From contig CM055092.1 of assembly GCA_029204225.1 (NCBI GenBank), positions 83,944,026-84,008,025 of the forward strand: a stretch of DNA of 64,000 bases, written 5' to 3'. Source of the DNA: Diphasiastrum complanatum. Taxonomy: Eukaryota; Streptophyta; Lycopodiopsida; Lycopodiales; Lycopodiaceae. This document shows positions 32,602-63,631 of this stretch, in pieces. The notes below the pieces were generated by a model. It ran no database searches. It had not been told where the DNA came from and worked only from the letters and a program-made list of their open reading frames with translations. The position numbers and the translations under genes are program-made. Numbering within the stretch: the stretch's first letter is position 1; every line of letters begins with the position of its first letter.

Positions 32602-35600
32602 TGAAGGGACCTCAGTCACATGTCATCTAAACGAATATGTTGCAGTCTATGCAGCTCAAACTCAACGTCAAGGCGGGAGGAACTACGGCTGCTACGGATG
32701 TGGCAAAGGACACATAATTGTGGAATGTCCCTACAGGGACAATATACATCCTTCTCCCGAGAATGCGGTTATGGACATTGTTACAAGAATTGTCCATTGA
32801 AACCTGGAACTAGTGCACCTCTGAACTTCATTGCGATAAACAACTACTCAATCAGCTAGTTGCCTTAGGTTCGCCAGTATCAGACGAAGATACTAACATG
32901 TCTCTCTTGTCTAGTTTTTCTCTCTCTTACAATAATTTAGTATTGCTACTCAGTAATACTCCTGACTTGTCTCTCCAAAAGGTGACAGCAAGCTTATCCA
33001 CATCAAATATGAAGACAGTCGCTCTCTATTTGAATAAGCAACAGTTTTCGAAGAAGAAATCTTTGAAGGATAAGAAGACAAAAGCTGAGCAAACTTACTA
33101 GACTAGCAATCACAACAACAAAATCGAAAACATCAAAAGCCTAAGACCAGACTCTTTTGCAAGTATTGCAAGAAAACCAACCATGACATCAAGGATTGTC
33201 GAGTTCTCAAGCATAACGAAGCCAAGAAGAAGATGCGGTAGGATGAAGGATCTAATTCTGCCAAAACCTCTCAAGAAGAACCAACTCTGCTAATGATACA
33301 AGATTTACACATCAGAGATGCGATGGATTGGTATCTCGATTCTGGTGCTTCTCAGCACTTGACAGCATGTAAGTCCTTATTCAAAGACCTCACACCAGCA
33401 GATTTAAAGTATGTCTACTTCGGTGACTCAAATGCACTACAGATTGAAGGCAAATGATCCATTCGCCTTTATCTTCCAAATGGTAAATTGACCTTGCTCA
33501 AGGATGTACTATACGTACCCAAACTGACCAAAAATTTATTGTCAGTCAGCAAGTTTACTAATCAAGACTGCAAAGCCTTGTTCAATTCAAAGAATGTACC
33601 ATTTTGGACAAGCACGACAAAGAGATATTCTTTGCAAACAGATAAGGTAATCTATACGTTCTGGGTCCCAAATATGCACTTTCCATACATGTGAGTACTT
33701 CAAATGCCCAATTATGGCATCAAAGATTAGGACATCTAAACATGATATCAATCTTGTATATGCATCATAATTCTATGGTCAAGGATTTAAATTTCAATGT
33801 TGTCTCCACTGACATTCGACATTTCTATGAGCATCAGGGGAGTTTTGAGCTCCAAAAAGACCCTTTAAGAATTCGTGCAAGATGTCTTTTATATTATTAA
33901 AATATTATAACACTAATACTTTTGACTTGCCATAACTTTTTAATCATAGCTCAAAAGTACGTTATATAACATATCAATGGAAAGTCCTTGTTGAGCGCTT
34001 TCCAATGCACCAAACTCCGCTAAATTCGGACTTACCACTAAAACGTTATGCCATTTTTAGTGTGGAATCAATATGTGGACTCAAAAAGTTACGTTACGTA
34101 GATTTCAAATTTGAGTGTTGTAATTGGTCCATGTGCAAGAAAAATTTGAGAAAAAATATAAAAAAAATCTTTACAAAGGGTCTTTTTGGAATTTAGAACT
34201 CCTCTAATGATGTGCCTACTGGGCAAACAACCTAGATCAAGATTTTCAAAGGGACAAGCCACTAGAGCTAAGTCCATTCTAGAATTAATACACAGTGATC
34301 TGTGCAGCCCTATGAATACTCTCTCTCTCTGGGTTCTACAGTATATCTTATCACTTATATTAATGACTATTCCAAATTTACCAGCATTATGTTCATCCAG
34401 AACAAGTCTAAGGCTTTTAATTGTTTCAAAGACTTCAAACAATTTGCTGAGACACAGACTAGTCAACGACTCAAAATCTTTTGTACTGACAATGGTGGAG
34501 AGTTTTAGTCAAATGAAATGTTTGACTATCTGGCATCATTTGGCATTCATCATCAGTTCACCACCAGCTACACACCACAGCAAAATGGAGTATCCAAAAG
34601 GAAGAACTGCACATTGCTGAGTGCAGCACAATCGATGATGTCAAATGCTCAACTCACCAAAACCTTTTGGGCTGAAGCTATTTCAATAGCTTGCTATCTG
34701 CGGAACTATTCGAGTACCAGAGCAGTCGATTCAAAGATTCCCTTCGACGCTCTCTATGGCTACAAACCGAGTCTACGACACCTCCGAGTGTTTGGTTGTC
34801 TTTGCTATGTACACATTCCCTCTGATCTGAGAAAGAAGTTTGACCTTGTTAGCTATAGGAGTATCTTCATTGGATACTCGACATCACACAAGGCATATAG
34901 AATTTTTGATGCTGAAACGAGCCAAATCTTAGTTAGTCGAGATGTCATCTTCCTCGAAGACAAATTTTTTGACTTCAAGCAGAAGCAGCCAATGCAAGAG
35001 TATGTCCCAACGACTCCCATCACCATCGACAAGCCTGGAACTGCAACTATTCTGACAAACATCAAAGCTATCCATGTCGCACAGCAACGAGAATCATCAT
35101 CTCAATAATCGACTATTGTTTGGAGATCTGCACGACATCGAGAAGAACCTGATCGTTTTGTCCCTCAGGCATTCATCAACAATGATGGACTCACTTCAGT
35201 AATAAAAGCATTGTCAAGTTTGAATGCAGACAGCTGACATTGTGCCATGCATGTTGAATGTAGTTCATTGATGAAGAACAAGACGTGGCGCCTTGTTGAA
35301 ACTCCTGCAGATGCAAAGATCATCGACACCAAGTGGATCTTTAAGCTGAAGCTCAATCTAGATGGTTCAACAGCCAAATGGAAAGCTCGTATAGTCATCA
35401 AAGGATATGAACAAACTCATGGGATTGACTACTCTGATACATATAGTCCAGTAGTAAGACTTCAGTCAATTCAATCTTTATTCGCCTTCGCAGCTTCTGA
35501 AGATCTGAAAATACACCAGATGGATGTTTAAACTGTCTTTTTGAATGGATATATACAAGAATATATCTATATCTATCAACCTGAAGATTGCGTCCTTCAA

Positions 35601-36735
35601 GGCCAAGAACACAAAGTATGTAAGCTGCATAAAGCTCTCTACAGGCTAAAGCAAGCTCCAAGAGCCTGGTTTGATAGAATCAATCGATTCTTGTTGCAGC
35701 ATGACTTCATCTTGAAATCTACTGAATCTAATGTTTATCTCAAACACAGAGGCCCAAGCTATGTCATGATAGCTCTATACGTTGATGACTCATTGATCAT
35801 CAGCAATTCGAATCTGCTACTTGATGAGATGAAGAATCTTCTGTTGAAGGAATTCGAAATGACTGATTCAGGCCCTGTGCACTACCTTCTGGGGATCGAG
35901 ATAAACAGAGATAGAGCAAGGAAAAGTATCACACTAAGTCAAGAAAAGTATCTAACCAGTGTACTCTATAGGTATGGGATGGAAAACTACAAGTCAATAG
36001 ACTCTCCTATGGACTCAGGATTCAAACTGTCAAAGGATATGTGCCCAAAGACTGATGCAGAGAAGAAAGAGATTTGTAAATACCCCTCTTAGTTGATAGT
36101 CGGATAGATCATGTACACCATGGTCTGCACCAGACCTGATCTAGCAATTATAATTAGCACATTATTACATTTATGTCCAATTCTGGCCTACCTCACTGGA
36201 AGGCTCTACTGAGAGTACTAAGATACATTCAAACCACTAAGCATTATGCTTTGTGTTATAATGGAAATACAGAGATTGCATTGACATTACTTACTTATTC
36301 TGATTCTGATTGGACTGGTAATGTGGACACAAGAAAATCTACATCTGGCTATCTTTGCTTTATAGTAGGATGACCCATTTCATAAAGCAAAAATGTATTT
36401 CTTTGTCCTCCACAGAATCAGAATATGTCGCAGCTACCTCTGTAGTAGAAGAAATCATCTGGCTCAAAAGATTGCTTCAGGATCTTATGATAATTCAAAT
36501 CAGTCCAACTATACTCTATTGCTGCATTGCTCTATCTCTGAACCCACAAACTCACTCTAGAACTAATTATATTGGAGTTCAATTTCATTTTCTTAGAGAG
36601 AAAGTTCAGAATAAAGATGTCGAATTAAGTTACTGTCCTATGACCAATATGTTGGCTGATATCTTGACTAAGCCTTTGTCAAAAGAAAAGCATATTGCAT
36701 TATGTAGCTTGCTCAATTTATTTTCAAGATCCTAG
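32602..36735 (+). pseudogene. Copia family B gag-pol, near full length, degenerate
   Basis: Plus strand. An odd double zinc-finger segment (32690-32800), then gag (LLSSFSLSYNNLVLLL), knuckle CKYCKKTNHDIKDC, protease WYLDSGASQH, finger LWHQRLGHLN, integrase core (CTDNGGEF, YTPQQNGVSKRKN, DLRKKFDLVSYRSIFIGYS), reverse transcriptase (KARIVIKGYEQTHGIDYSDTYSPVV, LYVDDSLI, HYLLGIEINRDRA) and RNase H (YSDSDWTGNVDTRKSTSGY, SSTESEYVA, ILTKPLSKEKH). Stops at several sites and a 378-bp insertion at 33832-34209 in the integrase finger. The sequence after its end (AAGCAGGGG then TATTGG) does not match the LTR on its left, so the element is a composite or has a replaced 3' end. Confidence 0.85.
33832..34209. 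mobile_element. 378-bp MITE-like element with inverted termini
   Basis: It interrupts the copia integrase; the sister copy at 12890 lacks it. The left end reads CATCAGGGGAGTTTTGAGCT followed by CCAAAAAGACCCTTT; the right end, reverse complemented, reads CATTAGAGGAGTTCTAAATT followed by CCAAAAAGACCCTTT, giving imperfect 35-bp terminal inverted repeats. The inside is AT-rich and non-coding. No clear target duplication remains (left flank CTATGAG, right flank ATGTGCC), so the superfamily is not assigned. A related terminus occurs at 53546. Confidence 0.7.
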
Positions 36736-37850: not shown

Positions 37851-40800
37851 CTAGCTTGGTTCAATCATTGCTTTACTAATCACTCCAAGTGATGATCTGA
37901 ACTTCATAAAAGGTGTCTTTTGAAGTGGTTTAGTAAGTAGATCAGCTACACATTCATTGCTTGGAACATGCTCCAAAGCAATCTCCTTGGCTTGCACCAT
38001 TTCTCTCACAAAGTGATGGCATATCTCAATGTGCTTAGATCTTGCATGGAAGATTGGGTTAGATGCAAGGTGTTGGGCTGATATATTGTCATTGTAGATG
38101 ATTGGTGCCTCCTCTGAATCCATGATCTTTAGTTCCACCAATAATCTCTTGATCCAAAGTACCTCCTTTGTAGTGGTTGTCAAAGCTTTGTACTCGGCCT
38201 CGGTTGAAGATAGAGATATAGTTTCTTGCTTTTTTGAAAGCCATGAAACCACACCTTCTCCTATGAAAGTTGAATAGGCACTTGTTGATTTCCTATCCCT
38301 CTTGTCCCCTGCAAAATCCGAATCACTAAATGCATGAAGGTTAATCACATCTCCTCTATATAGAATCCCAAAATCCAATGTACCCGAGATGTATCTTAGA
38401 ATCCTCTTAGCCTTTTTCCAATGGATATTCAATGGCTTTTGCATGGATTGGCTCAACCTACATACACTAAAGCTAAGATCTGGTCTAGTTATAGTGATCC
38501 ACATTAAGGAACCTATAAGTTGCCTAAACAAAGTGATGTCCATGAAGGATCTTTCATCATCTTCATTTGGCACTTTTACATCTTGCTCCATTGGTGTGTC
38601 AACACTTTTGCATACTTCCATCTTAAACTTCTTCAAAAGACTTTGAGCATAGTTTACTTGACTTATAAAGATAAAAGACCCTCTAAGTACTTCTATGCCT
38701 AAGATGAAGTGAAGACACCCTAGATCTACCATCTTGAACTCTAAGGATAGATCTATCTTGATTTTTTCAATACCATCAACACTATTTCCACTAATGATGA
38801 TGTCATCTACATAAATGAGTAAAAGTACAATACCAACATCATCAAACTTAATGTAAAGAGTGGGATCATATTCACTTTGAACAAAAGAAAGTGAAATAAG
38901 ATAGCAATGTAGTCTTGAATTCCAAGATCTCGAGGATGCTTCTTTGGAGATGGCATACTTTGTTCTCCATTCCATGCTTGATGAACCCTTGTGGCTGCTC
39001 CATATAGATATCCTCTTCCAAAAAACCATTCAAGAAAGCATTCGAGACATCCATTTGACATAGAATCCATCCAAAATGTGATGCAAGTGCAATGATTAGT
39101 CTTATTGTGACCATCTTGGCCACGGGTGCAAAAGTTTCCTCATAGTCTATCCCTCTCTCTTGAGCATAACCTTTTGCAACTAATCTTGCTTTATGTTTGT
39201 TAACACTCCCATTTGCATTCAACTTAAGCTTGAAGACCCACTTGCATCCTATTACATTCCTTTGAGGTCTCTCAACAAGCAACCAAGTTTCATTCTCAAT
39301 CAAGGCATCATACTCATCCAACATAGCTTTATACCATTCTTTGGAGTTCAATGCATCTTCAACATTAGACGGTTCTTCAAAACTAGATAAAGCATAAGAA
39401 GTGGATGAGATACCCTCAACTTGCTGTCCTTTGCCTTGATATGTGAGCCTTGATGGCTCCACTTTTGCCCTTGAAGATCTCCTTGGTGTGATAGGTGGGT
39501 TTGGTGCTTGCTCCTCCATGAGCTCCTCCTCAAAACCAAGATCTTGCTCCTCGGCCATCTTCTTCTTGATTGTTGGAGCACTTGAGCCTTCTTCAAGCAT
39601 ATGCATATGATGTTCATCAAAGATGACATCCCTTGAAACAAAAAATTTGTTCAAGGATGGGAGATAGACTTTGTAGCCCTTGCTTGAGCTTGCATATCCA
39701 AGCATGATCCCTCTTGTGGAAGATGGATCCTCCTTGGTTCTTGTTTCCAATGGCACATGCACATAACATATACACCCAAAAACTTTCAAGTGATTAAGAT
39801 TGGGTTTCTTTCCATACAACATCTCATAAGGAGTTTTGCCTTCAATTGCTTTGCAAGACACCCTATTCATCAAGTAGTTTGCACATACAAGAGACTCACC
39901 CCAAAAGGATTTGGGAAAACAAGCATCTAATCTTAAAGCCTTAGAACATTCACATAATGTTCTATTCCTTCTTTCAGCAACTCCATTTTGTTGAGGAGTG
40001 TAAGGACAAGAAGTCTCTTTCTTGATCCCTTCCTCCTCACAAAAGGCCTTGAACTCATTGGAGATGAATTCTCCACCATTGTCACTTCTAAGAATCTTGA
40101 TGCTATGATTATGATGCTTTTCCACAAACAACTTGAACTTTACAAAAGTATCAAATACTTGAGACTTGAAGGAAAGTAAGAACACCCAACAATATCTTGA
40201 GTAGTCATCAATGAAGGTTAAAAACATGGATGAACCTCCATTAGATTTGGTGCTAGCAATGTGCACATCTGAGTGTATGAGTTCAAGAGGATGAGATGAC
40301 TTTGTGATGGAGTTAGGAAACACCTTCTTATGTGCCTTGGATAAGGCACAAGCTTCACAAACCTTGTCTTCCTTCCCAATAGACCTTGGTAGGCCTAAAG
40401 CATACTCCTCCTTGATCATAGCCTCCATGGAACCCGAGTTGACATGTCCAAGTCTTTTGTGCCATAAAGTAAAAGTAGATATCTTGCTCTTCTCGGCCAA
40501 CATGACAACATTAGTATCCACAAATGCATCCAACTTAGAAAGTTTGCCAAGTCTAGTGCCCTTAGCCACTATCTTACCCTTCTTCTTGATGAAACATTCA
40601 TTTGAAGCAAAGTCAACATTGAAACCATTGTCTACCATTTGGCCAACACTTAGTAGATTCTTTGTTATTGTAGGAATGTACAAAACACCTTCTATGTTGA
40701 TCTTTTTGGAAGATCCTAAGCAAAGGGAAAATTCTACCAACTCCTTCAATCTTACAAGCTTCATCATTTGCTGTATAGATAGACTTTATAGGTCCATCAT

Positions 40801-41800
40801 AAGATAAGAGAGAAGAGAAAAACTCCCTTTTACTAGTCATGTGTGAACTAGCACCCGAGTCAATCCACCAAGGATCTTCTCCTTTGAAGCTTGTTGAAGA
40901 AAATATGGACATCATGAGAGAGTCCTCACGTGAACTCTCCTCCTCCTCCTCTTTGCTCATGTTGGCTTGGCTTTGATCTTGCTTCCTCTTGAAGCATTCC
41001 GAGGCATAATGCCCCATCTTGCTACAATAGTAGAACTTCACCTTTGATTTGTCCTTCTTGACTTTGGTGGTTGATGGAGATGCCTTTGGGGGTCCTTCTT
41101 GATCCTCAAGCTTTGTAGACTTCTTGAATGTTGATCCTTTGCCTTTGGACTTGCCTTTGCCTTTGGTGAAGAGAGCTTGGTCATCTCCACCTTGGATGGA
41201 AAGCCTATCCATCCTCTCTTGCATTTGGCTCCTTCTTGATTCCTCGGCCATGAGCGTGCCTTGGAGTTCTTCAAGTATGGGTAGCTTACCCATAATTGCA
41301 TATCCCTGAACCAAATTGTCAAATTCAAAGCTTAGTCCATTCAATATGAGTTGAACAAGCTCTTCATCCTTGATAGGTTCACCTATAAAGGCTAGCTCTT
41401 TGTTCAATTCTTTTACTCTTAGGACAAAAGTATGTGCACTCTCTCCTTTCTTTTGATAGCTTCTATAGATTTGATTCTTCAAAGCTAACATTCTAGTTTG
41501 GTTCTTGGATTCATAGACCTTTTGCAAAGTCTCCCAAGCATCTTGAGATGAAGTGCAATCTCCTACCTCTCTTAAGAGTTCATTTGCAACATTCATTTTT
41601 ATGCAATGTAGTGCAACATTGCACCTCTTGATGTATTTGGCTTTTTCTTGAGGATGAATAGGTTCACCCTCCTTACCATTTACAATTTCCATCAGATCTT
41701 GCATGATCATGATAGATTCCATTCTAACTTTCCATATGGAATAGTTAGTTTTGTTGAGCCTTTCATTAGTATCCAAAAGATATGCATTTATAGATGCCAT
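37851..41800 (-). pseudogene. Copia gag-pol (family E), two frameshifts
   Basis: Starts at ATG 41800 (MASINAYLLDTNERLNKTNY). Gag with the UBN2-type pattern, a zinc knuckle near 41030-40990 reading FYYCSKMGHYASEC in which the first Cys of CCHC is lost, protease WWIDSGASSHM, finger LWHKRLGHVN, integrase core (RSDNGGEF, YTPQQNGVAERRNR), linker, reverse transcriptase (KARLVAKGYAQERGIDYEETF, LLIYVDDIIISG) and RNase H (AFSDSDFAGDKRDRKSTSAY, SLSSTEAEYKAL), ending at 37851. The frame changes near 40725 (between protease and integrase finger) and near 38930 (in the [10 protein letters not shown] region). Otherwise open throughout, so it decayed recently. No primer binding site or 5' LTR was found to its right. 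Confidence 0.9.
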
Positions 41801-51758: not shown

Positions 51759-52099
51759 CTAATTGCTAATGTATGTGGTAAAATACGATATTGCTTTGAA
51801 GAAAATGAAAATGATGAATTACATTTAATTTCTTACTATGTTAGATAACGTAATCCAATAATAACAAAATGGAAAAACACAAACTCACTGGTAAACTCAC
51901 TCGAAGCTTAAGTGCAGACGTGCAATTGCTCGCTCTTTAAACGCTTGCTCTCTTTTTTTTGAATATTTTTGTCACATGCACAAGCAATTAAAAAATAACA
52001 CTATATTACACAATTCAACCATTATTATAAGCAAATTCAAACATACAAATCAAACATACAATTACCACTAGTCATCTACTACTCTAAATTGTAATCAAA

Positions 52100-53545
<1,446 letters not shown>

Positions 53546-53583
53546 ATTAGAGGAGTTTCGAGCACCAAAAGGGCCTTTTGTCA
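53546..53583. repeat. MITE-like terminus
   Basis: CATTAGAGGAGTTTCGAGCA followed by CCAAAAGGGCCTTTTGTCA matches the terminal inverted repeat of the element at 33832-34209. It sits right after a (CT)n run. No matching inverted end was found to the right in this window. Confidence 0.55.
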
Positions 53584-53933
53584 AGATGCTATTTTTGACT
53601 TTTCAACTATTCGACATACATTTGGCCCAGTTATATATTTACACCTGTGAAAGACCGTAACATTGTTTGCCGATCGATTTCTTTTTTGGAACTTTCCGGT
53701 CATATTTTTATACAATTCAAAACTCTTTTCGGGCAAGGTCTTGACTTGTGATTGGACCGTAATTGCTGCCCGTGAGTTTCTTGAGTGCCCGGGACCTAAC
53801 ACTTGTGGTTAAAGTAAGTCTATTTTGATCTAACCATAGTTAGAGTAACATATATGATTTACGAAAGACCGCCAACATTTATTACAAATTTGGTTATTTA
53901 TTTCCATACTGATTCAACTACATTTTGTTTCAG

Positions 53934-55323
53934 ACTCTGTTGTTCATCTTCTTTTAGCTTTGCAATGGCTTCCGAAAGCCGTAGACCATGAAGCAATATT
54001 GTCTCAGTTTCTGTTTGTAATGAAAAAGACTCTGATGGCTCTTAGATACCACGTATCTTTAGAAAATTTCACTGGGTTCTCATGCATCCCTCATCAAGAG
54101 GTGTTTTTGGTAAAAAGAGAAAATAAAAAATGGATTATAGGAATTTTAGACTTCAAAGTTTCACCCGGTGGTCGATCCATTTCAGAGGTCTTGATTCAAC
54201 ATGTCTACATGCATAAGGAAATTAGAGTGGAAGGCGTAAGTTCAAATAACAAACTCAAATGCAATTGTAAGTTTTGGAGAACTTTTTGCTTTGAGCTTTG
54301 CATTAATCATTCAGACGTGTATCCGAGTATTTAAATGACATATCGTTTTATGGATTTGTGTAGATTTGTATCCATCAAGCATAATTGAATGGCAACGTAT
54401 ACAATCCCTTGTCAACATCATGGACTCTATTCATTCTAATATTGGTCTTCTACAATACAAGAACCGCTCCACGAGATCACTTTTGAATTCTTGTATTTTC
54501 TTCTATGATTCATTTTACACACCATCCAGTTTAGGTGGAAAATTAGAGGCGATCTCATTACCCTCTTTCCCAAGAGAAGAATGGATTCCTCTAGATTCCA
54601 CCATAGCAGAGAGCTTACGATCAAGGTTTTTTATGGACATTCAAAACTGTATAAAATGTAGCACAGGTTCAAAAAACAATAGATTGCACTGGTTTATGTC
54701 TTTTGCAATATTTGTAAATTATTTTGTTGAATGTAATATTCGTAGAACAGTGACAATGTTTATTTGTAGTGATTTGACAGACAATATATTATCAAGCCTC
54801 CTTGATGATCATTGGGATAAAAAGAGTAATGGCAATATTGAGTGCATAGTTAATAGATTGTTAATGAAATTTAGATATCTTATAGAAAAACAAGTGCTTT
54901 CTTAAACATTTTATTATAGAAGTTCAGGATTTTACAGTGAATCATCAAGATCAAATAGAAATCCAAGTGAGAAAAATAATTCTACTCTTACAACAATTGA
55001 GGTGGAAGAAGATTGGATACTCGATCACATTCGATCAGAGCTTACATTGCTGCAATATGATATTCCTAAATACTTCTATTTTCGAGTCAACGAGAGATTG
55101 GTAGGTGTATGTGTATTTATTTCAGTACACATTTGAAATGACTTTCAATGATTTTATTTAAACATGTTTCAGTGCTTTCAGTATTGCAATATTTCATTTA
55201 AGATAATCTCAATGTTGATATTGTTTAACATGTTTTTTTGATGTAAAGGTAAGACCAAGACAAGAAAGTCGCATACAGTGCATGGACTTAAATAGAAGCG
55301 TAGAAATTGTTGAAACCGCATAA
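53934..55323 (+). pseudogene. Unrecognised multi-exon gene or gene fragment
   Basis: At least four exon-like blocks: 53934-54235 (LLLALQWLPKAVDHEAILSQ..., ending GAAGGC before GTAAGT), 54364 to about 54893 (LYPSSIIEWQRIQSLVNIMD..., LGGKLEAISLPSFPREEWIP), 54928-55100 (EEDWILDHIRSELTLLQYD, ending before GTAGGT) and 55249-55323 (VRPRQESRIQCMDLNRSVEI, stop TAA). Composition is that of an ordinary soluble protein with many hydrophobic and Leu/Ile residues. I recognise no domain. The first junction does not keep phase if the GT-AG sites are used as written, and no start exon was found, so it may be a captured or decaying fragment. It lies just downstream of a MITE-like terminus and converges on the H3-Ulp1-like gene. 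Confidence 0.5.
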
Positions 55324-55505: not shown

Positions 55506-56260
55506 CTATGCATCATAATGTGATGATATATTTCTATGTATCTGTCGGAACTTATGTGACAAAGGTGCCTGAGGCATATCCTCGAGCACTGTAACCTCAT
55601 CCACAGATTCCTTGGCAGGTTCATTGGAGGCACGTTCATGCTTGTAGGGCCTTGCACACGATAATAAAATTTTCAACATTTTATGCCGATATTGATGAAT
55701 CACATTTGTTGATACCTCAGGACATTGGAACTGCAAGACAAAATAGTGAGTGTATGTATGTATTAGCCAACGTTTTAAAAAATATAAATTTATAAAGTTA
55801 ACAATATATCATCAGGATACTAAAACTTTGAAAAAAAATATCTCACGGATACTAGCATCTGGAGGTTGCATCATATACCAATCCAAGAACGATTTAACAT
55901 TTCAGATTGAATACCATCTGCAGCTGAAAGCATCGTCTTGTTGCAAAGATTGAGAAATCACAACGAGAAATTGTTAAATTATAATTCAATATAATTCTAA
56001 ACTCCATGCCATCATGCAAATAAAATACGTGAAAAGATTCTTTTTACCTTTGCATCAACAATTTCTATGTTAGTATTTACAATCAACCCATCCGGCCTGG
56101 GCAATAGCTCCACCATCCTCTTGTACATGGACTTAACCATGGAATGGGTGGCATTCAAAGAATTCATTGTCATGCACATAGGTGTGCAGCTTCAGGTAGA
56201 ATCCACTTTCATGGATATGACATGCACACTCTAATGTTTGCTGCTAGAAAATGACAAGCA

Positions 56261-56265
56261 ATAAA
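56261..56265. other. Target site duplication, left (ATAAA)
   Basis: ATAAA flanks the left LTR and is repeated at 62489-62493 right after the other LTR; five bases is the usual copia target duplication. Confidence 0.85.
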
Positions 56266-56985
56266 TGTTAAATTTCACACGTGTGGACTGTCCACTACAT
56301 GTACTTGTGATCTCCTAAGGTGTGTAGATGCACCAAGATCAAGACTAGATTGAAATTCAAGATCAATCTTGAATCCTATGGCAAAAACACACTACTACAT
56401 GCATTCAATCACTTCCAACTCTCACTCACACGTGTGGGAAGTATTCAAAAAATGATCTAAGTAAAAACAAGCTGCTCTCCTCGGGTAGAGAGAGAAAATG
56501 CATCAAGAGCTCTCGGGTAGAGAGAGAAAGCTAAAAATCCAATAACTCACCAAATCAATTGACTTCAAAATGAGGAGTACAATGATACTAGTAGGTCCAC
56601 GAGCTACCACTATGCTTAACTATGATTGGACCACATTTTGTCACCTCTTGATCCTATTGGATCATTGATCTATGCACCTCTTAATTCTATTGGACTATAT
56701 TCAAGCACACCTTAATTTCCTATTGGACCTCACAAGGTTCCACCTCTATATCCTATTGGACCTCTTGGAATTCATCAAACAAAAACTTTACACTTGTCTA
56801 CACTCTAATTAGCAAGTGTTTAGCCTCTTACTCTATTTTGGCTCAATAGTGGCATTACAAGTGGAAATGCATAATTTGCCATCTATGCCAAATTTATTCC
56901 TATCAACATCCTACACCTAGATGCTTGATGTAAAAAACATAAGACCCCTATATCTAACATAGATAATCTTTTTCAATTCTTCACA
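56266..56985 (-). repeat. 3' LTR of full-length copia
   Basis: TG...CA ends: minus strand TGTGAAGAATTG ... GAAATTTAACA. Lacks 17 bp (around 56549) present in the partner LTR. Contains CACACGTGTG palindromes near both the outer end and position 56427. Confidence 0.95.
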
Positions 56986-56998
56986 CTCCTCCTAAAAA
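56986..56998 (-). other. Polypurine tract
   Basis: Minus strand TTTTTAGGAGGAG directly before the 3' LTR; same tract as in the copy at 2881-2893. Confidence 0.8.
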
Positions 56999-57003
56999 AT
57001 TAT

Positions 57004-60000
57004 CTATGAAGATTTGAGCATCGATCTTGATATAACTCCAAGATTAGATCTATGCTTGATGAAAGCACTTTTGCTCAAAGGCTTGGTGAGTAGATCGGCA
57101 ATACAAGAGGACGAGTTGACATGCTCCAAATAGATTTCTCCTCCAATAAGCTTTTCTCTCACAAAATGGTGTGCCACTTCTATGTGCTTGCTTCTTGCAT
57201 GAAATATGAGATTATTGGCAAGAGCTTGGGCCGAGATGTTATCACACTTGATCATTGGTAGATCATCCTCCTTGATGCACTTTAGTTCCATTAATAACCT
57301 CTTGATCCAAAGCACTTCTTTGGTAGTTGTAGTGAGTGCTTTGTACTCGGCCTCACATGAAGAGAGAGATATAGTATCTTGCTTTTTGGAAAGCCAAGAT
57401 ATTAGATTTCCTCCAAGAAAGATAGTGTATGCACTAATAGACTTTCGATCCATCTTGTCACTTGCAAAGTCCGAATCCGAGTAGCCAATAATGGATAGAT
57501 CTTCACTTTTATAGAGTAGACCATAATCACAAGATGAAGATACATATCTTAGAGTCCTCTTGGCCTTCTTCCAATGATGGATCTTAGGTTCTTGCATAAA
57601 TTGACTCAATTTGTGCACACAAAAACTAAGATCGGGCCTAGTAATGGTAAGCCAAATCAAGGAGCCTACAAGACTCCTAAAAAGTGTGATGTCCTCAAAG
57701 GATCTTTCATCACCTTTATTAGGATCTTTTACAATTTGCTCCATTGGAGTATCTATGCTCTTAGAATTTTCCATATGAAATTTTTTCAACATAGAGTGAG
57801 CATATCTAGATTGGCATATAAATAAATGATTTTCATAAAAATCAATTTCTAGGCCTAGGATGTAATGTATCTCTCCTAGATCTTGCATTTTAAACTCACA
57901 TCCAAGTGCTAGCTTGGTTTCATCAACTAGCTTGATACAACTTCCACAAAGAATAATGTCATCAACATAAATTAGAAGAATGACAATATTGCTATCAACA
58001 AACTTTAGATACATGGAAGGATCATAGTCACTAAGATTAAATCCTAGTGAGATAAGAAAAGAGTTAAGTCTTGAATACCATGATCTTGGTGCTTGCTTGA
58101 GTCCATAGAGACTTTTGAAGAGCAAGCACACTTTGGACTCATCCTTGATGAATCCTTGAGGTTGTTTCATATAGATCTCCTCCTCAAGATAACCATTTAG
58201 AAAAGCATTGGATACATCTAATTGGAACACCTTCCACTTGAAAAAACAAGCAAGAGAAATAAGAATTCTTATTGTCATCATCTTTGCAACAGGTGCAAAG
58301 GTCTCCTCATAATCAAGACCATGGATTTGAGCAAATCCTTTGGCACATAATCTTGCTTTATGCTTGTTGATGGTGCCATCATGATTAAATTTGATCCGAA
58401 ATACCCACTTGCAACCAATCACATGCTTGTTGGAAGGAGGATCCACAAGCTCCCAAGTATTGTTGGTGATCAATGCATCATACTCTTGCTTCATGGCATC
58501 ATACCACTCCTTGGTATTGAGCGTCTCTTGTACATTCTTTGGCTCTTCATGAGAGACATAAAAAACATAATTAGTGGAATCAAGATCCACTTGTTTGCCT
58601 TTGTCAACATATGAGAGCCTCTTAGGCTCGGATCTATCTCTCATGGATCTTCTTGGTGAAAAAATCCGAGGAGAGTCTTCTTCAAATCTCGACCCCATCA
58701 CATCATGATTGTCTTCAAAATCAATAATTGATGATGCATCCATAGATTTCTTGATCTCGGCCTCTTCAAATGATGAGTGTTGATCTTCATGAAAGACAAC
58801 ATCTCTACTTTCAATAACTTGAGAAGTAGAGAGTATAAAGACTCTATAGGCCTTCTTAGTGGATGAGTATCCAACCATGATCCCTTTGCATGCACTAGGA
58901 TCTTCCTTCTTCCTTGTTTCCAAGGGAATATGGACAAAGCATAAGCATCCAAAAACTCTAAGGTGATCAACCTTAGGCTTCTTCAAAAATAAGATTTCAT
59001 ATGGTGACTTTCCTCCAAGAGCTATATGTGGGAGCCTATTGCAAAGATAATTTGCACAATTAATGGCTTCTCCCCAAAAATCTTTGGGCAAAGATGCCTC
59101 AATTCTCATAGATTTTGCACATTCACATAGAGATCTATTCTTTCTCTCAGCCACTCCATTTTGAGATGGAGAGTAGGCACAAGAAAACTCTCTTTTAATG
59201 CCTTCAAGCTCACAAAAATCTTGAAATTTATTGGAGATATATTCACCACCTCCATCACTTCTAAGAGCTTTAATCTTGAATGAGAATTGCTTCTCTACAT
59301 AAGCTTTGAAAATAAGGAAATGATCAAACACCATAGATTTTGAAGCAAGAAGATATATCCAAGTGAATCTTGTGTAATCATCAATGAAAGTAACAAAACA
59401 AGTGGCTCCTCCCTTGCTTGTAGTTGATGAGAAATGCACATCCGAGTGGATTAACTCCAAAGGATGTTTGCTTTTGATAGAAGATCTTGTAAATGGCTTT
59501 TTGTGAGATTTAGCAATAGCACAAGCCTCACAAGGCTTGATCTTTTTGGAGAATGACTTTGGGAAGCCAATAGCTTTGGATTCTTTGATCATAGAGAGCA
59601 TGGATTTGTAGTTGGGATGTCCCAACCTCCTATGCCATAGTTCCTCCATAGAGAGCTTGTTCACAAGAGCAACATTACAAGCATTCACATACTCATTTGG
59701 ATCTAGTTTATAGATGCCACCAAATCTAGATCCTAATGCAAGTATCTCATCATTCTTCTTGATAGTGCAAGTATCAACATTGAATTTTACATCAAGGCCA
59801 TTATCAAGCAATTTGCCAACACTAATAAGATTCTTGGTAAGCTTAGGTACAAAAAGAACTTTAGTAAGAGAAAGAGTTTTAGAAGATGCAAGCTTTAAAG
59901 GAATATTCCCTATTTCTTCAATTGGACATTTATAATCATTTGCAGTGTATATTGATTTCTTAGCTCCATCATAAGGTGCAATAGAAGAGAAAGAGTCCTT

Positions 60001-60993
60001 GGAGCTACACATATGTGAAGAGGCTCCACTATCAATATACCATAGGCCGTCCTTCTTGAAAGGAGTAGATGAGAAACTAGAGACCATAAGAGATCCCTCT
60101 CCATCACTTGCAATAGTGTCTTCCTTCTCATTGGTAATATTGGCTTGCTTGAGTTGATTCTTCTTTTTGAAGCAATTGGTGGCATAATGACCTTTCTTGC
60201 CACAATAAAAGCACTTGATCTTCTTCTTCTTCTTGAGCTTGGATGATGAAGCATTAGAGGAATCATCTTCCTTCTCATCTTTGTCTTTGGATTTGACTTT
60301 GTCCTTGCTTGAGGATTGTTGATGTTGGTTCTTGCTCCTCTCTCTGTGCTTATCCTTGGCAAAGAGAGCTTTGCCATCATTATGAGTGAGAGAAAGCTTG
60401 TCCATCCTCAAGAGCTTGTACTCTTGTGTTGATTCTTCTGAAATTAGCACACTTTGGAGAGCCTCCAAACTTGGTAGCTCCTCCTTAATGGCATAGGATT
60501 GGACAAGGTTATCAAATTCACTTCTCAAGCCATTGAGAATGACTTGAACTAGCTCATTTTGATTGATGGAATCACCAATGCAAGCAAGCTCTCTATGAAT
60601 ATCTTTTACTCTCAAAACATAACTAGATGCACTCTCATCACTCTTTTGGCTACTTTGAAAGATTTGATTCCTAAGAGTGAGAAGCCTAGAGGTATTCTTA
60701 GCCTCATAGATAGCCTTGAGACAATCCCAAGCTTCTTTGGCTGTTGTACAAGTACCTATCTCCCTCAATATCTCATTAGAGACATTCATCTTAATGTAGT
60801 GGAGAGCCATCCTAGCTCTCTTTTTGTATTTTTGAACCTCTTGAAGAACTTGTGGTTCTTCTTCAAGGCCAAGAACTATGTCCATCACGTCTTGAAGGAT
60901 CAAGATGGACTCCATCCTCATTTTCCAAATTGAATAATTTGAAGTGGTCAATCTTTCACTTGGTTTCAACAAGGATGAACCCATTGAAGACAT
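57004..60993 (-). CDS. Copia gag-pol polyprotein, intact (1329 aa)
   Basis: Encodes all enzymes needed for copia retrotransposition as one polyprotein. The ATG at 60993 (MSSMGSSLLKPSERLTTSNY) is chosen as the first Met in frame. Approximate residues: gag 1-250 with the UBN2-type LLRMD-containing region; zinc knuckle CFYCGKKGHYATNC near 260; protease WYIDSGASSHMC near 320; integrase finger LWHRRLGHPN...CEACAIAKSHKKP near 450-490; integrase core HSDVHFSS, FIDDYTRF, RSDGGGEY near 515-585; reverse transcriptase [50 protein letters not shown] (YVDD near 1007); RNase H YSDSDFASDKMDRKS, SLSSCEAEYKAL, and the terminal ADLLTKPLSK block. No stop or frameshift. Length is normal for plant copia elements. 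Partner copy at 1-2873 is broken. Confidence 0.95.
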   Translation of the reverse strand: MSSMGSSLLKPSERLTTSNYSIWKMRMESILILQDVMDIVLGLEEEPQVLQEVQKYKKRARMALHYIKMNVSNEILREIGTCTTAKEAWDCLKAIYEAKNTSRLLTLRNQIFQSSQKSDESASSYVLRVKDIHRELACIGDSINQNELVQVILNGLRSEFDNLVQSYAIKEELPSLEALQSVLISEESTQEYKLLRMDKLSLTHNDGKALFAKDKHRERSKNQHQQSSSKDKVKSKDKDEKEDDSSNASSSKLKKKKKIKCFYCGKKGHYATNCFKKKNQLKQANITNEKEDTIASDGEGSLMVSSFSSTPFKKDGLWYIDSGASSHMCSSKDSFSSIAPYDGAKKSIYTANDYKCPIEEIGNIPLKLASSKTLSLTKVLFVPKLTKNLISVGKLLDNGLDVKFNVDTCTIKKNDEILALGSRFGGIYKLDPNEYVNACNVALVNKLSMEELWHRRLGHPNYKSMLSMIKESKAIGFPKSFSKKIKPCEACAIAKSHKKPFTRSSIKSKHPLELIHSDVHFSSTTSKGGATCFVTFIDDYTRFTWIYLLASKSMVFDHFLIFKAYVEKQFSFKIKALRSDGGGEYISNKFQDFCELEGIKREFSCAYSPSQNGVAERKNRSLCECAKSMRIEASLPKDFWGEAINCANYLCNRLPHIALGGKSPYEILFLKKPKVDHLRVFGCLCFVHIPLETRKKEDPSACKGIMVGYSSTKKAYRVFILSTSQVIESRDVVFHEDQHSSFEEAEIKKSMDASSIIDFEDNHDVMGSRFEEDSPRIFSPRRSMRDRSEPKRLSYVDKGKQVDLDSTNYVFYVSHEEPKNVQETLNTKEWYDAMKQEYDALITNNTWELVDPPSNKHVIGCKWVFRIKFNHDGTINKHKARLCAKGFAQIHGLDYEETFAPVAKMMTIRILISLACFFKWKVFQLDVSNAFLNGYLEEEIYMKQPQGFIKDESKVCLLFKSLYGLKQAPRSWYSRLNSFLISLGFNLSDYDPSMYLKFVDSNIVILLIYVDDIILCGSCIKLVDETKLALGCEFKMQDLGEIHYILGLEIDFYENHLFICQSRYAHSMLKKFHMENSKSIDTPMEQIVKDPNKGDERSFEDITLFRSLVGSLIWLTITRPDLSFCVHKLSQFMQEPKIHHWKKAKRTLRYVSSSCDYGLLYKSEDLSIIGYSDSDFASDKMDRKSISAYTIFLGGNLISWLSKKQDTISLSSCEAEYKALTTTTKEVLWIKRLLMELKCIKEDDLPMIKCDNISAQALANNLIFHARSKHIEVAHHFVREKLIGGEIYLEHVNSSSCIADLLTKPLSKSAFIKHRSNLGVISRSMLKSS

Positions 60994-61738
60994 TTGAAGT
61001 GAAGAAAACTCAAATGATGAACAATAAATGTTGTTACACACTTTCAATAGGATCCAATAATTGAGTACTATCTCCTCCTATGAAAGATCTTGCAACTATT
61101 TGTGAATTGATTCTCACTAGCTACACAAATCTCTCTAAAACAAGATCTATTTCACATCAAATGATGGAGTATATGCAAAGTTAGGATCAAACACTCTTAG
61201 CACGTGTGAAGTACTCTAAGAAACCAAATTTGACTCAAATACAATGATATTGCATGAAACAAAATGGCTCAGATCTCAAAACAGTGCCTAGATCACATAT
61301 AGATGAGATTGGCAAGCATACAACTGTGATTTTGGATCAACCAAGCAACCTCTTGACCAAACCAAATGTGTCCACCCAGGTCTAGGTGCCCTACCTAACC
61401 CTCTTCAAAAGCTTATAACTTTTGATTGGCTCAACCAAATGGAATGAAACTGATTGCAACAGAAACTAGACAAAAATAGCTTCAAAACAAGCTATCAAGC
61501 AAGATAAATGGATCAAACATGAGAGAGAACTTCCAAACTGAAATTGGATGTTCCTCACACGTGTCTGAGCACCTGATTCTGTACAGTACCAAGGTCAGAC
61601 CCAATCAATGTCCTTTTGATCTCTTTTGACCCAAGATTGAACAAGATAGCTAGGAAAATGGGCCTTGACAACTTCTAGCTCAAGATTGATGAAATTTTTT
61701 TCACTTAGATGGATCAGAATGCATGGTAACCTTAGGTA

Positions 61739-61751
61739 GGCTCTGATACCA
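61739..61751 (-). other. Primer binding site (tRNA-iMet)
   Basis: Plus strand GGCTCTGATACCA, minus strand TGGTATCAGAGCC: complementary to the 3' end of plant initiator-Met tRNA, directly abutting the 5' LTR. Confidence 0.9.
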
Positions 61752-62488
61752 TGTTAAATTTCACACGTGTGGACTGTCCACTACATGTACTTGTGATCTC
61801 CTAAGGTGTGTAGATGCACCAAGATCAAGACTAGATTGAGATTCAAGATCAATCTTGAATCCTATGGCAAAAACACACTACTACATGCATTCAATCACTT
61901 CCAACTCTCACTCACACGTGTGGGAAGTATTCAAAAAATAATCTAAGTAAAAACAAGCTACTCTCCTCGGGTAGAGAGAGAAGATGCATCAAGAGCTCTC
62001 GGGTAGAGAGAGAAAGCTAAAAATCCAATAACTCACAAAATCCATGAAATCACCAAATCAATTGACTTCAAAATGAGGAGTACAATGATACTAGTAGGTC
62101 CACGAGCTACCACTATGCTTAACTATGATTGGACCACATTTTGTCACCTCTTGATCCTATTGGATCATTGATCTATGCACCTCTTAATTCTATTGGACTA
62201 TATTCAAGCACACCTTAATTTCCTATTGGACCTCACAAGGTTCCACCTCTATATCCTATTGGACCTCTTGGAATTCATCAAACAAAAACTTTACACTTGT
62301 CTACACTCTAATTAGCAAGTGTTTAGCCTCTTACTCTATTTTGGCTCAATAGTGGCATTACAAGTGGAAATGCATAATTTGCCATCTATGCCAAATTTAT
62401 TCCTATCAACATCCTACACCTAAATGCTTGATGTAAAAAACATAAGACCCCTATATCTAACATAGATAATCTTTTTCAATTCTTCACA
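61752..62488 (-). repeat. 5' LTR of full-length copia
   Basis: 737 bp, same ends as the 3' LTR. This copy drives transcription of the element leftward, in the same direction as the host pseudogene. Confidence 0.95.
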
Positions 62489-62493
62489 ATAAA
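62489..62493. other. Target site duplication, right (ATAAA)
   Basis: Second copy of the 5-bp duplication created on insertion of the copia element. Confidence 0.85.
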
Positions 62494-63253
62494 TTATTAG
62501 AATCTATAAGAGTTTCCAAAAACAAATCTTACAGAAAACAAATATTACAAGAAGAAACTATCTTACTTTGAACAATATGGGATGATGAACATTGATGCCT
62601 CCTTGCTAGTTTGCTTGAAGAGCCTTTTGGCTTTCCTCTCTTTATTCAATAGATGCACATGGAGATATGCCAAAAATCTTCTTTGTGACTGCATATTTAT
62701 TTTTATGTACATAGTATGCACAAGCGGATTCAACTACTGTGTCTAAGATATATGAGGTCTTCTCTTTTAGCTCCCTACAATGCGAGTCTTTGATATGCAT
62801 TGCAAAAATTATATCGAATATACAAAACATAAACTCTTCTCCGAGATCATCTATTTTCTTGGCTATATAAAAGTCAAAATTAATGTACCTCTCAGAATAA
62901 AAAAATGTGTCTTTAGGTTCATTGGAAAGTTTGATGTGCAACTCTTTATCAGTGGCATCAACATGAAAAACAATCATGCCCACCATTGTATCTAAGTCAC
63001 TCTCATGTATAGAAGGAGAATCGTGCAGTTAAAGATCAGGGGTTAGGGGAGGACTCTCAACCAATGGAATTGCGGACATACTAGCTAGATCTTTTCTAAT
63101 GGGAGGAGGTGAGGGTGAAGAGCTGGGAGACCTAGACTTGGGTTGCGAATGCTTGGGCTGTGCTTGCTTTCTCTTTTTGCGGGGTGGGACAGGCCCCCTT
63201 TCAAGAGGAACTTGCCTCTGTGTGAAGCCAGACTTAAAAATGTTGTCATAGGT

Positions 63254-63631
63254 GTTTCGAAGCCTCATGACAAGAAGCATGTCCTTGGGCATCAGTGTCA
63301 CCCTCTTGCCATGAATGGAGCACATCATCAAATCCTCAAACAATTTTGTCTGGAAGTCCTCGTATGCAGTATGGAGGGCCTCCAATGCAGTGATATTCCA
63401 CCTCACTACATAGGGCAGATGGGTGGTCATATCTTGTGTAACCTCCCTCATAGCCCTTTAGAAGGCTGCTTTCAGGATCAAAAGTTTGGTGCTCCTCTAC
63501 AAGGCCCTGATGTCCCTCAACCATGGACAGCGAGGTCTTCCGCGTCTTTGCAGACATACGGGTTCAGATGTCTGGGGATGCGACAGTTGAATAAAATTGG
63601 TAAGCCTAGCGGTTTGCTTCGTCCGAGTCAT
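63254..63631 (-). other. Histone H3 tail and histone fold within the fusion
   Basis: Codons 1-9 read MTRTKQTAR (H3: MARTKQTAR), keeping Lys4. Codons 38-48 read LRDIRAL-stop-RST (H3: LREIRKYQKST); 50-64 read LLILKAAF-stop-RAMREV (H3: LLIRKLPFQRLVREI). The a2-L2-a3 part reads TKLFEDLMMCSIHGKRVTLM then PKDMLLVMRLR (H3: [20 protein letters not shown] then MPKDIQLARRIR). The tail is about ten residues shorter than canonical H3 and lacks the Lys9, 14, 18, 23 and 27 neighbourhoods. Both stop codons replace H3 glutamines. Confidence 0.88.

What the first reader, a model, noticed from the sequence alone, without database searches (positions are those of the whole stretch)
55506..63631. A histone H3 joined in frame to a Ulp1/SUMO-protease-like protein
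Seen: the minus strand from 63631 opens with MTRTKQTAR, then LRDIR, LLIL, and the LFED..C.IH.KRVT.MPKD block of histone H3. The same frame runs through a basic, Ser/Pro-rich linker into a second domain; the two parts are separated only by one TAA, with 14 codons in frame between it and the next ATG. Further along, IPYCS-NKH-(TAG)-SVHVISMKVD fits the His-Trp region of C48 (Ulp1) proteases. Known: H3 normally ends about ten residues after the fold; Ulp1 proteases are often carried by plant transposons. Inference: an ancestor encoded an H3-tail protein able to enter chromatin with a C-terminal SUMO protease. I know of no described gene of this design.
Basis: partly seen in the sequence, partly recalled or inferred. 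Interest (0 to 1): 0.88.

Follow-up and report, generated by a model that had tools for sequence, protein, structure and literature searches.

The report
Transposon-borne histone H3–Ulp1 protease fusion
A family of jumping genes repeated many times in a plant genome carries its own histone H3, joined in one protein to a SUMO-protease-like enzyme; the copy in this window is a broken fossil, but other copies still have open reading frames, and the histone has kept lysine 4 while losing the lysines used for gene silencing.

Summary
On the minus strand the window carries a decayed four-exon gene. Exon 1 encodes an H3 tail, an H3 fold, a basic linker and the start of an Ulp1-like (C48) domain; exons 2-4 carry its His-Trp, Asn and Gln…Cys motifs. 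This copy has in-frame stops, a frameshift and a Ty1-copia element in intron 1. Elsewhere in the genome, copies keep both parts in one open exon 1; two of three spliced family-B genes read through as 470-aa proteins, and the one scanned matches Pfam Histone (97 bits) and Peptidase_C48 (42 bits). It is an accessory gene of a DNA transposon with CATTAG… inverted repeats, a DDE-like gene unknown to Pfam and a third gene. Two capped searches matched about 290 diverged-H3 places; all 32 read belong to these element families. Lysine 4 is kept in 24 of 25 readable tails, lysine 9 in none. Inferred mechanism: the histone brings a de-SUMOylating protease into chromatin to resist silencing. Function, expression and SUMO specificity are untested. 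Pfam C48 does not match the window's subfamily directly; the link runs through family B (profile-profile E=1e-21). H3 versus CENH3 ancestry is unresolved.

The parts
62564..63631 (-). Exon 1 (broken: in-frame stops and a frameshift): H3 N-tail, H3 fold, basic Pro/Ser linker, N-terminal lobe of C48 domain, ending ..FIIPYCS at the GT donor
56266..62488 (-). Ty1-copia LTR retrotransposon inserted in intron 1 (LTRs about 62488-61753 and 56985-56266; 5 mismatches in 720 aligned positions plus 18 gap columns; TSD TTTAT); a later insertion, not part of the gene
56084..56239 (-). Exon 2: His-Trp region and MNS (Asn where C48 usually has Asp, recalled); broken by stops
55842..55943 (-). Exon 3: QQDDAFSC (Gln and nucleophile Cys region); 42% identical to family B over 33 residues, E=9e-7; broken by a stop
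55506..55730 (-). Exon 4: C-terminal end of the C48 domain
   Evidence: the exon 4 query was this window's own sequence; relatives; aligned through to family B
53960..55103 (+). Remains of the transposon's third gene, opposite strand (homologous to genes in families A and B; family-A protein matches at E=1e-19); no Pfam family
53545..53575 (.). Right terminal inverted repeat of the element (CATTAGAGGAGTTTCGAG…)
   Evidence: compare TIRs

Best explanation
It is a dead copy of an accessory gene of a cut-and-paste-type DNA transposon family that has multiplied in this plant genome. The gene encodes a diverged histone H3 fused, across three introns, to an Ulp1/C48-type cysteine protease. Shown: architecture, exon structure, repeat nature, and homology over both parts between diverged families B and W. 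Inferred mechanism: the histone part pairs with H4 and enters (or is chaperoned to) nucleosomes. Because it keeps the K4 end but lacks K9 and the ARKS site of K27, it makes chromatin that cannot take the usual silencing marks, and it carries a protease that removes SUMO or a SUMO-like tag from silencing factors. This keeps the element expressed and mobile. Confidence: architecture and transposon origin about 0.93; anti-silencing mechanism about 0.35.
For: Spliced L016 (470 aa) matches PF00125 at 97 bits and PF02902 at 42 bits, E=1e-10. Exon 3 of L016 alone just reaches the C48 cut-off (20.8 against 20.7 bits). W and B exon 1 align over 366 columns, 30% identity, E=9e-42; their C48 parts align over 233 columns through exons 2-4 at E=1e-21. 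L016 lies in an 8,681-bp element with 35-bp perfect TIRs and an upstream DDE-like gene. Families A, B and the window share the third gene, and A and B the DDE-like gene. Repeats: 140 matches below canonical H3 score plus 150 of the window's subfamily, both capped. Tail: K4 in 24 and K9 in 0 of 25 readable tails; 7 of the 32 loci had no readable tail. No ARKS stretch in 9 of 9 open exon-1 proteins read. The H3-H3' bundle residues (H113, R116, D123, R129; numbering recalled) are kept in one sequence each of A, B, C and W.
Against: No expression or activity data. In the 5 of 13 fetched family-A loci that were tested, no C48 exons were found at E<=1, so the protease is not needed by every family. 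In the single family-C locus the exon-1 ORF stops inside the lobe, so C48 is not shown there. In-frame dN/dS in W is 0.38, but off-frame controls give 0.48-0.95, so selection is only modestly supported; the one B pair gives 1.37 in exon 1. No target-site duplication of 2-12 bp in 3 of 3 copies with both flanks read. Pfam knows neither the DDE-like gene nor the third gene. Pfam C48 does not match the W subfamily directly. W copies L037 and L042 and B copy L014 have lost the nucleophile Cys.
Confidence: 0.6

Rival explanations
1. Passive gene capture: the transposon picked up pieces of a host H3 and an Ulp1 gene (Pack-type transduplication) with no function for the element.
For: Plant MULEs and CACTAs often carry captured gene fragments, ULP1 among them (passages of PMC2528002). 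dN/dS in W is only a little below off-frame controls; B pair 1.37 in exon 1. Of 12 W loci only 2 have a fully open exon 1.
Against: The in-frame fusion and its four-exon structure are shared by subfamilies only about 30% identical in protein. No same-strand blastn match over 200 bp was found between L016, L020 or L027 and the window's element. The histone is present in all four families A, B, C and W, and K4 kept/K9 lost repeats in A, B and W.
Confidence: 0.22
2. Two neighbouring genes (an H3-like gene and a C48 gene) that only look fused because decay removed the stop between them.
For: In the window a TAA and 14 codons separate them, and the downstream ORF has its own ATG.
Against: W copies L036 and L041 and five family-B copies have no stop between the two parts; splice sites are conserved within B and within W.
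Confidence: 0.03
3. A CENH3-derived protein: the histone part comes from centromeric H3 and steers the element, or its protease, to centromeres.
For: Best PDB match of the W fold is fission-yeast Cnp1/CENP-A (73.8 bits against 71.8 for the best other H3 chain), of family C CENP-A (78.5 against 77.6), and of the Ceratopteris protein P0110 CENP-A/Cse4 or H3/CENP-A chimeras in all 14 best rows. W and P0110 have the longer loop 1 with Arg/Lys-Trp seen in plant CENH3 (recalled).
Against: Families A and B match canonical H3 best, with no CENP-A among the 60 rows listed. Trees do not resolve H3 from CENH3. Printed copies are spread over many contigs; centromere positions are unknown.
Confidence: 0.25
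4. Endogenous remains of a DNA virus that encoded a histone and an adenain-like protease.
For: Some large DNA viruses carry histones or C48/C5-type proteases (recalled).
Against: Three spliceosomal introns, an 8.7-kb unit with 35-bp TIRs and only three genes found, homologous to genes of other elements of the same kind.
Confidence: 0.03

Closest known systems
Ulp1-carrying plant DNA transposons (KI-MULEs, CACTA-ULP)
   Same: DNA transposon in a plant with a C48/ULP protease region beside the transposase; some in high copy number (passages of PMC2528002).
   Different: Those have mudrA or Tnp2 transposases; here no Pfam transposase matches, and the ULP is fused to a histone H3.
C48-carrying Cryptons (CryptonF, CryptonS of oomycetes)
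   Same: Mobile element with a C48 (Ulp1-related) peptidase (passages of PMC3212892).
   Different: Cryptons use a tyrosine recombinase; no histone is described in the passages seen.
VANC anti-silencing proteins of Arabidopsis VANDAL transposons
   Same: Proposed role: an element-encoded protein that counteracts epigenetic silencing (start of the abstract of PMC10398659, listing).
   Different: VANCs are sequence-specific; this would act as a histone variant with a protease.
Canonical histone H3 / CENH3 (CENP-A)
   Same: N-terminal ARTKQT, histone fold, conserved H3-H3' bundle residues.
   Different: No K9 and no ARKS (K27) site, shorter tail (or a long polyproline insert in family A), altered loop 1, fused enzyme.

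Membership tests
Histone H3 (PF00125) | Profile match over the fold | tested here: met
   Window piece E=3e-12; spliced L016 97 bits; spliced L036 76.5 bits
Histone H3 (PF00125) | ARTKQT-type N-terminus with K4 | tested here: met
   K4 in 24 of 25 readable tails of 32 loci searched, residue 4 left free in the pattern; exception is the one family-C locus
Histone H3 (PF00125) | K9 site | tested here: not met
   0 of 25 readable tails have K9; hence called an H3 variant, not canonical H3
CENH3 / CENP-A | Closer to CENP-A than to H3 by sequence | tested here: inconclusive
   W, C and Ceratopteris P0110 favour CENP-A; A and B favour H3; trees unresolved
CENH3 / CENP-A | Centromere localisation | not testable with these tools
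   needs ChIP or imaging
Peptidase C48 (Ulp1, PF02902) | Profile match | tested here: met
   Family B (L016) 42.2 bits, E=1e-10. Not met directly for the window's subfamily W: spliced L036 has no PF02902 match; W is linked to B at E=1e-21
Peptidase C48 (Ulp1, PF02902) | His, Asp/Asn, Gln and Cys catalytic residues | tested here: met
   DHW, MNS (Asn, not Asp), QQ…C in L016 and L025; KHW, MNS, QQ…SC in L036 and L041; lost Cys in L014, L037, L042; the Asn assignment is by alignment only
Peptidase C48 (Ulp1, PF02902) | Cleaves SUMO or another ubiquitin-like protein | not testable with these tools
   no biochemistry
Cut-and-paste DNA transposon | Terminal inverted repeats | tested here: met
   35-bp perfect TIRs in L029+L016; family A TIRs
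Cut-and-paste DNA transposon | Recognisable DDE transposase | tested here: inconclusive
   D/D/E-like motifs read by eye; no Pfam transposase at E<=10
Cut-and-paste DNA transposon | Target-site duplication | tested here: not met
   none of 2-12 bp in L016, L025, L019; some DNA transposons lack TSDs (recalled), so the filing as cut-and-paste rests on TIRs and gene content
MULE or CACTA | mudrA or Tnp2 transposase | tested here: not met
   no such Pfam match to the DDE-like gene of family A or B

The most novel reading that the evidence does not exclude
A transposon has evolved its own 'unsilenceable' nucleosome: an element-encoded H3 that keeps K4 but lacks K9 and K27 is built into the element's chromatin and carries its own SUMO protease, making a self-propagating anti-silencing chromatin state, a kind of selfish histone not described before.
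Probability: 0.25. Interest if true: 0.97.

Novelty: new variant of a known kind. Interest (0 to 1): 0.85.

Why it matters
Ulp1-bearing plant transposons are known, but why they carry a protease is unclear (partly recalled). Here the protease is physically tied to a histone, which points to chromatin as its place of action and makes the anti-silencing idea testable. An H3 that keeps K4 and loses K9 and the K27 site in separate families of a mobile element would be a natural experiment on which tail residues silencing needs. The element's transposase-like gene is also not recognised by Pfam.

Tried and rejected
Two separate genes: rejected, because copies L036 and L041 and five family-B ORFs are open across both parts.

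Fusion in other species: not shown. Protein search 1 (0 of 34 rows carry PF02902) and one search (0 of the 120 rows listed of 871) found only histones. P0022 (unnamed source; a fern is my guess) and the Ceratopteris protein P0110 share the H3 type, but P0022's tail does not match the C48 lobe (hhalign probability 0.2%), so my early reading by eye of its IILPYVER as the same intron position is withdrawn. Search 3, with the H3 part masked, returned nothing at all from 3179 candidates, not even P0022, so it was an ineffective query and not evidence of absence.

CENH3 origin: left open. The host's own CENH3 could not be sought because the genome search stayed busy.

BAH domain for the third gene: suspected by eye, no Pfam support for pieces from family A and the window; the tail of the family-A protein gives only a weak PB1 match (E=0.011). 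The family-B third gene was not scanned (one search failed).

Fold prediction of P0110: low confidence (mean pLDDT 57), not used.

dN/dS: off-frame controls weaken it. Pairs with fewer than 5 differences were dropped; near-duplicates L033 and L038 were dropped.

Literature: no transposon-encoded histone or H3-Ulp1 fusion among the rows seen in open-access PMC searches (listings and starts of abstracts only): 15 of 2161 shown; 15 of 82; 1 of 1; 0; 1 of 1; 10 of 152. Subscription papers and repeat databases were not searched. Searches were listings for other leads.

Scripts that gave nothing or stopped: pattern found nothing; stopped after its first locus; repeated by another method.
Full report
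1. The observation. The minus-strand frame from 63631 contains an H3 tail and H3 fold followed by a basic linker and a second part; the open piece 63029-63451 matches Pfam Histone at E=3e-12. The copy is dead: three in-frame stops and a frameshift in exon 1, and further stops in exons 2 and 3. Exons 2, 3 and 4 follow at 56239-56084, 55943-55842 and 55730-55509.

2. It is a repeat. A search of the genome with PF00125 gave 153 matches, not all printed; 13 are canonical H3 (163.7 bits or more) and 140 score lower; only 150 of 6325 first-look candidates were scored. The window's own piece gave 150 matches, itself included, at E<=1.3e-62, again capped at 150 of 5846. Since the W fold scores only 76 bits with PF00125 and the printed full-length matches score 95 bits or more (three short ones 83-84), the two lists should not overlap, so about 290 diverged-H3 places is a lower bound, some of them perhaps assembly or segmental duplicates. 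I read 20 loci of the first list, chosen for long open frames, and 12 of the second (window included); all 32 belong to families A (13), B (6), C (1) and W (12).

3. Open copies show the fusion. Family B has exon 1 ORFs of about 330 codons running from the H3 tail to …IPYHTK in 5 of 6 loci, then three GT-AG introns; of three genes spliced, two (L016, L025) give 470-aa proteins and one (L014) has a stop in exon 2. Spliced L016 matches Histone (97.3 bits, residues 27-123) and Peptidase_C48 (42.2 bits, E=1.1e-10, residues 316-442); L025 was not scanned. In the window's subfamily W (12 loci, window included), exon 1 is found in 12 of 12, reaches IPYCSK in 10, and is fully open in 2 (L036, L041); exon 2 is found in 7, exon 3 in 6, exon 4 in 4 of these 3.4-kb pieces. 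L036 and L041 keep the nucleophile Cys; L037 and L042 do not.

4. The C48 call for W. Pfam C48 does not match spliced L036 (exons 1-3 only). The link is by homology: the W and B C48 regions align over 233 columns at E=1.1e-21, 28% identity; exon 1 of W and B aligns over 366 columns at E=9e-42, and the lobes alone at 9e-12 (49.3 bits without composition adjustment, against at most 22.3 in shuffles). Conserved motifs are His-Trp, MNS (Asn where Ulp1 has Asp, recalled) and Gln…Cys.

5. The element. L029+L016 hold a complete family-B element: 8,681 bp with 35-bp perfect inverted repeats CATTAGAGGAGTTCTCAATATCAAAAAGACCCTTT. It carries, left to right, a DDE-like gene (motifs LDESEIVKG, GDLKTLKCMY…CLYC, QGMEKSH read by eye), the H3-C48 gene, and a third gene on the other strand. 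Family A shares the DDE-like and third genes and ends in CATTAGGGCCC… repeats; it has the H3, with a long polyproline insert between tail and fold (L028), but no C48 exons in the 5 of 13 loci tested. The single family-C locus has the histone and only the start of the lobe. The window shares the third gene (53960-55103, E=1e-19) and a right-end repeat at 53545; its left part lies beyond the window and no DDE-like gene was found in the next 6 kb. No target-site duplication of 2-12 bp was seen in three copies. Pfam recognises neither the DDE-like gene nor the third gene.

6. The histone. Of 32 loci searched for a tail, 25 were readable: A 9, B 5, C 1, W 10. K4 is present in 24 (the C copy has Glu); K9 is present in none (Asp or Gly in A, Asp in B, Ala in C, Leu in W) (a narrower pattern found 24 tails with the same result, 23 of 24 and 0 of 24). 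Some W and A loci are near-duplicates of each other. No ARKS stretch occurs in 9 of 9 open exon-1 proteins read. The residues of the H3-H3' bundle (numbering recalled) are kept in one sequence each of A, B, C and W. By PDB sequence comparison W, C and the Ceratopteris protein P0110 lean to CENP-A, A and B to canonical H3. Trees on about 100 columns do not settle it: elements plus P0022 and P0110 form a group at 80/89, and none of the six alternative groupings put to the AU test was rejected (some A, B and other rows of the first tree were dropped; that tree was equally unresolved).

7. Selection. Pooled dN/dS in W exon 1 is 0.38 (N-tail 0.59, H3 fold 0.43, linker 0.29, C48 lobe 0.33, exon 2 0.30), but five off-frame controls give 0.48-0.95, so this alone is modest evidence. 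The B pair L016-L025 gives 1.37 in exon 1 and 0.31 in exon 2. Stronger is that diverged subfamilies keep the same two-domain, four-exon gene.

8. Mechanism (inferred). The protein would pair with H4 through its intact fold, enter chromatin, present a K4 end without the K9/K27 silencing sites, and bring a de-SUMOylating or de-ubiquitin-like enzyme to silencing complexes. Nothing here shows expression, incorporation or cleavage.

9. Known relatives. ULP-bearing MULEs and CACTAs (PMC2528002 passages), C48-bearing Cryptons (PMC3212892 passages), VANC anti-silencing proteins (PMC10398659, start of abstract). No paper on a transposon-encoded histone or an H3-Ulp1 fusion was among the rows seen in searches. 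Hence: a new variant of a known kind (ULP-carrying DNA transposon), with a protein design not seen before in what I could search.

Noticed in passing
56266-62488: Young Ty1-copia element with a 1347-codon ORF (57004-61047), 5-bp TSD and nearly identical LTRs; copia-like ORFs also lie at about 197-2305, 34509-36089 and 37854-41800.
   Followed up: partly
34149-34209: A 61-bp piece matching the family-B terminal repeat, so another element of this kind probably ended here.
   Followed up: no
52050-53545: Long GT/GA microsatellite tract (GC skew -0.67 over 52001-54000) directly flanking the element's right end.
   Followed up: no
L028 and other family-A loci: Family A H3 has a long, variable polyproline insert between the ARTKQTAR tail and the histone fold.
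   Followed up: partly
L019:221-1713: Third gene of the element: first part looks BAH-like by eye without Pfam support; the tail gives a weak PB1 match (E=0.011).
   Followed up: partly
P0110, P0022: A Ceratopteris protein and a protein of unnamed source share a CENP-A-like H3 with an ARTK tail, a long loop 1 and a common C-terminal extension (FDILNIPPA).
   Followed up: partly
L036 (gene orientation), position 2906, just after exon 3: Another CATTAG-type terminal repeat starts here, suggesting nested insertion of these elements into each other.
   Followed up: no
P0001, P0002, P0035: Several public proteins (one named histone H3-2, others uncharacterized) are tandem copies of canonical H3, probably merged gene models.
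   Followed up: no
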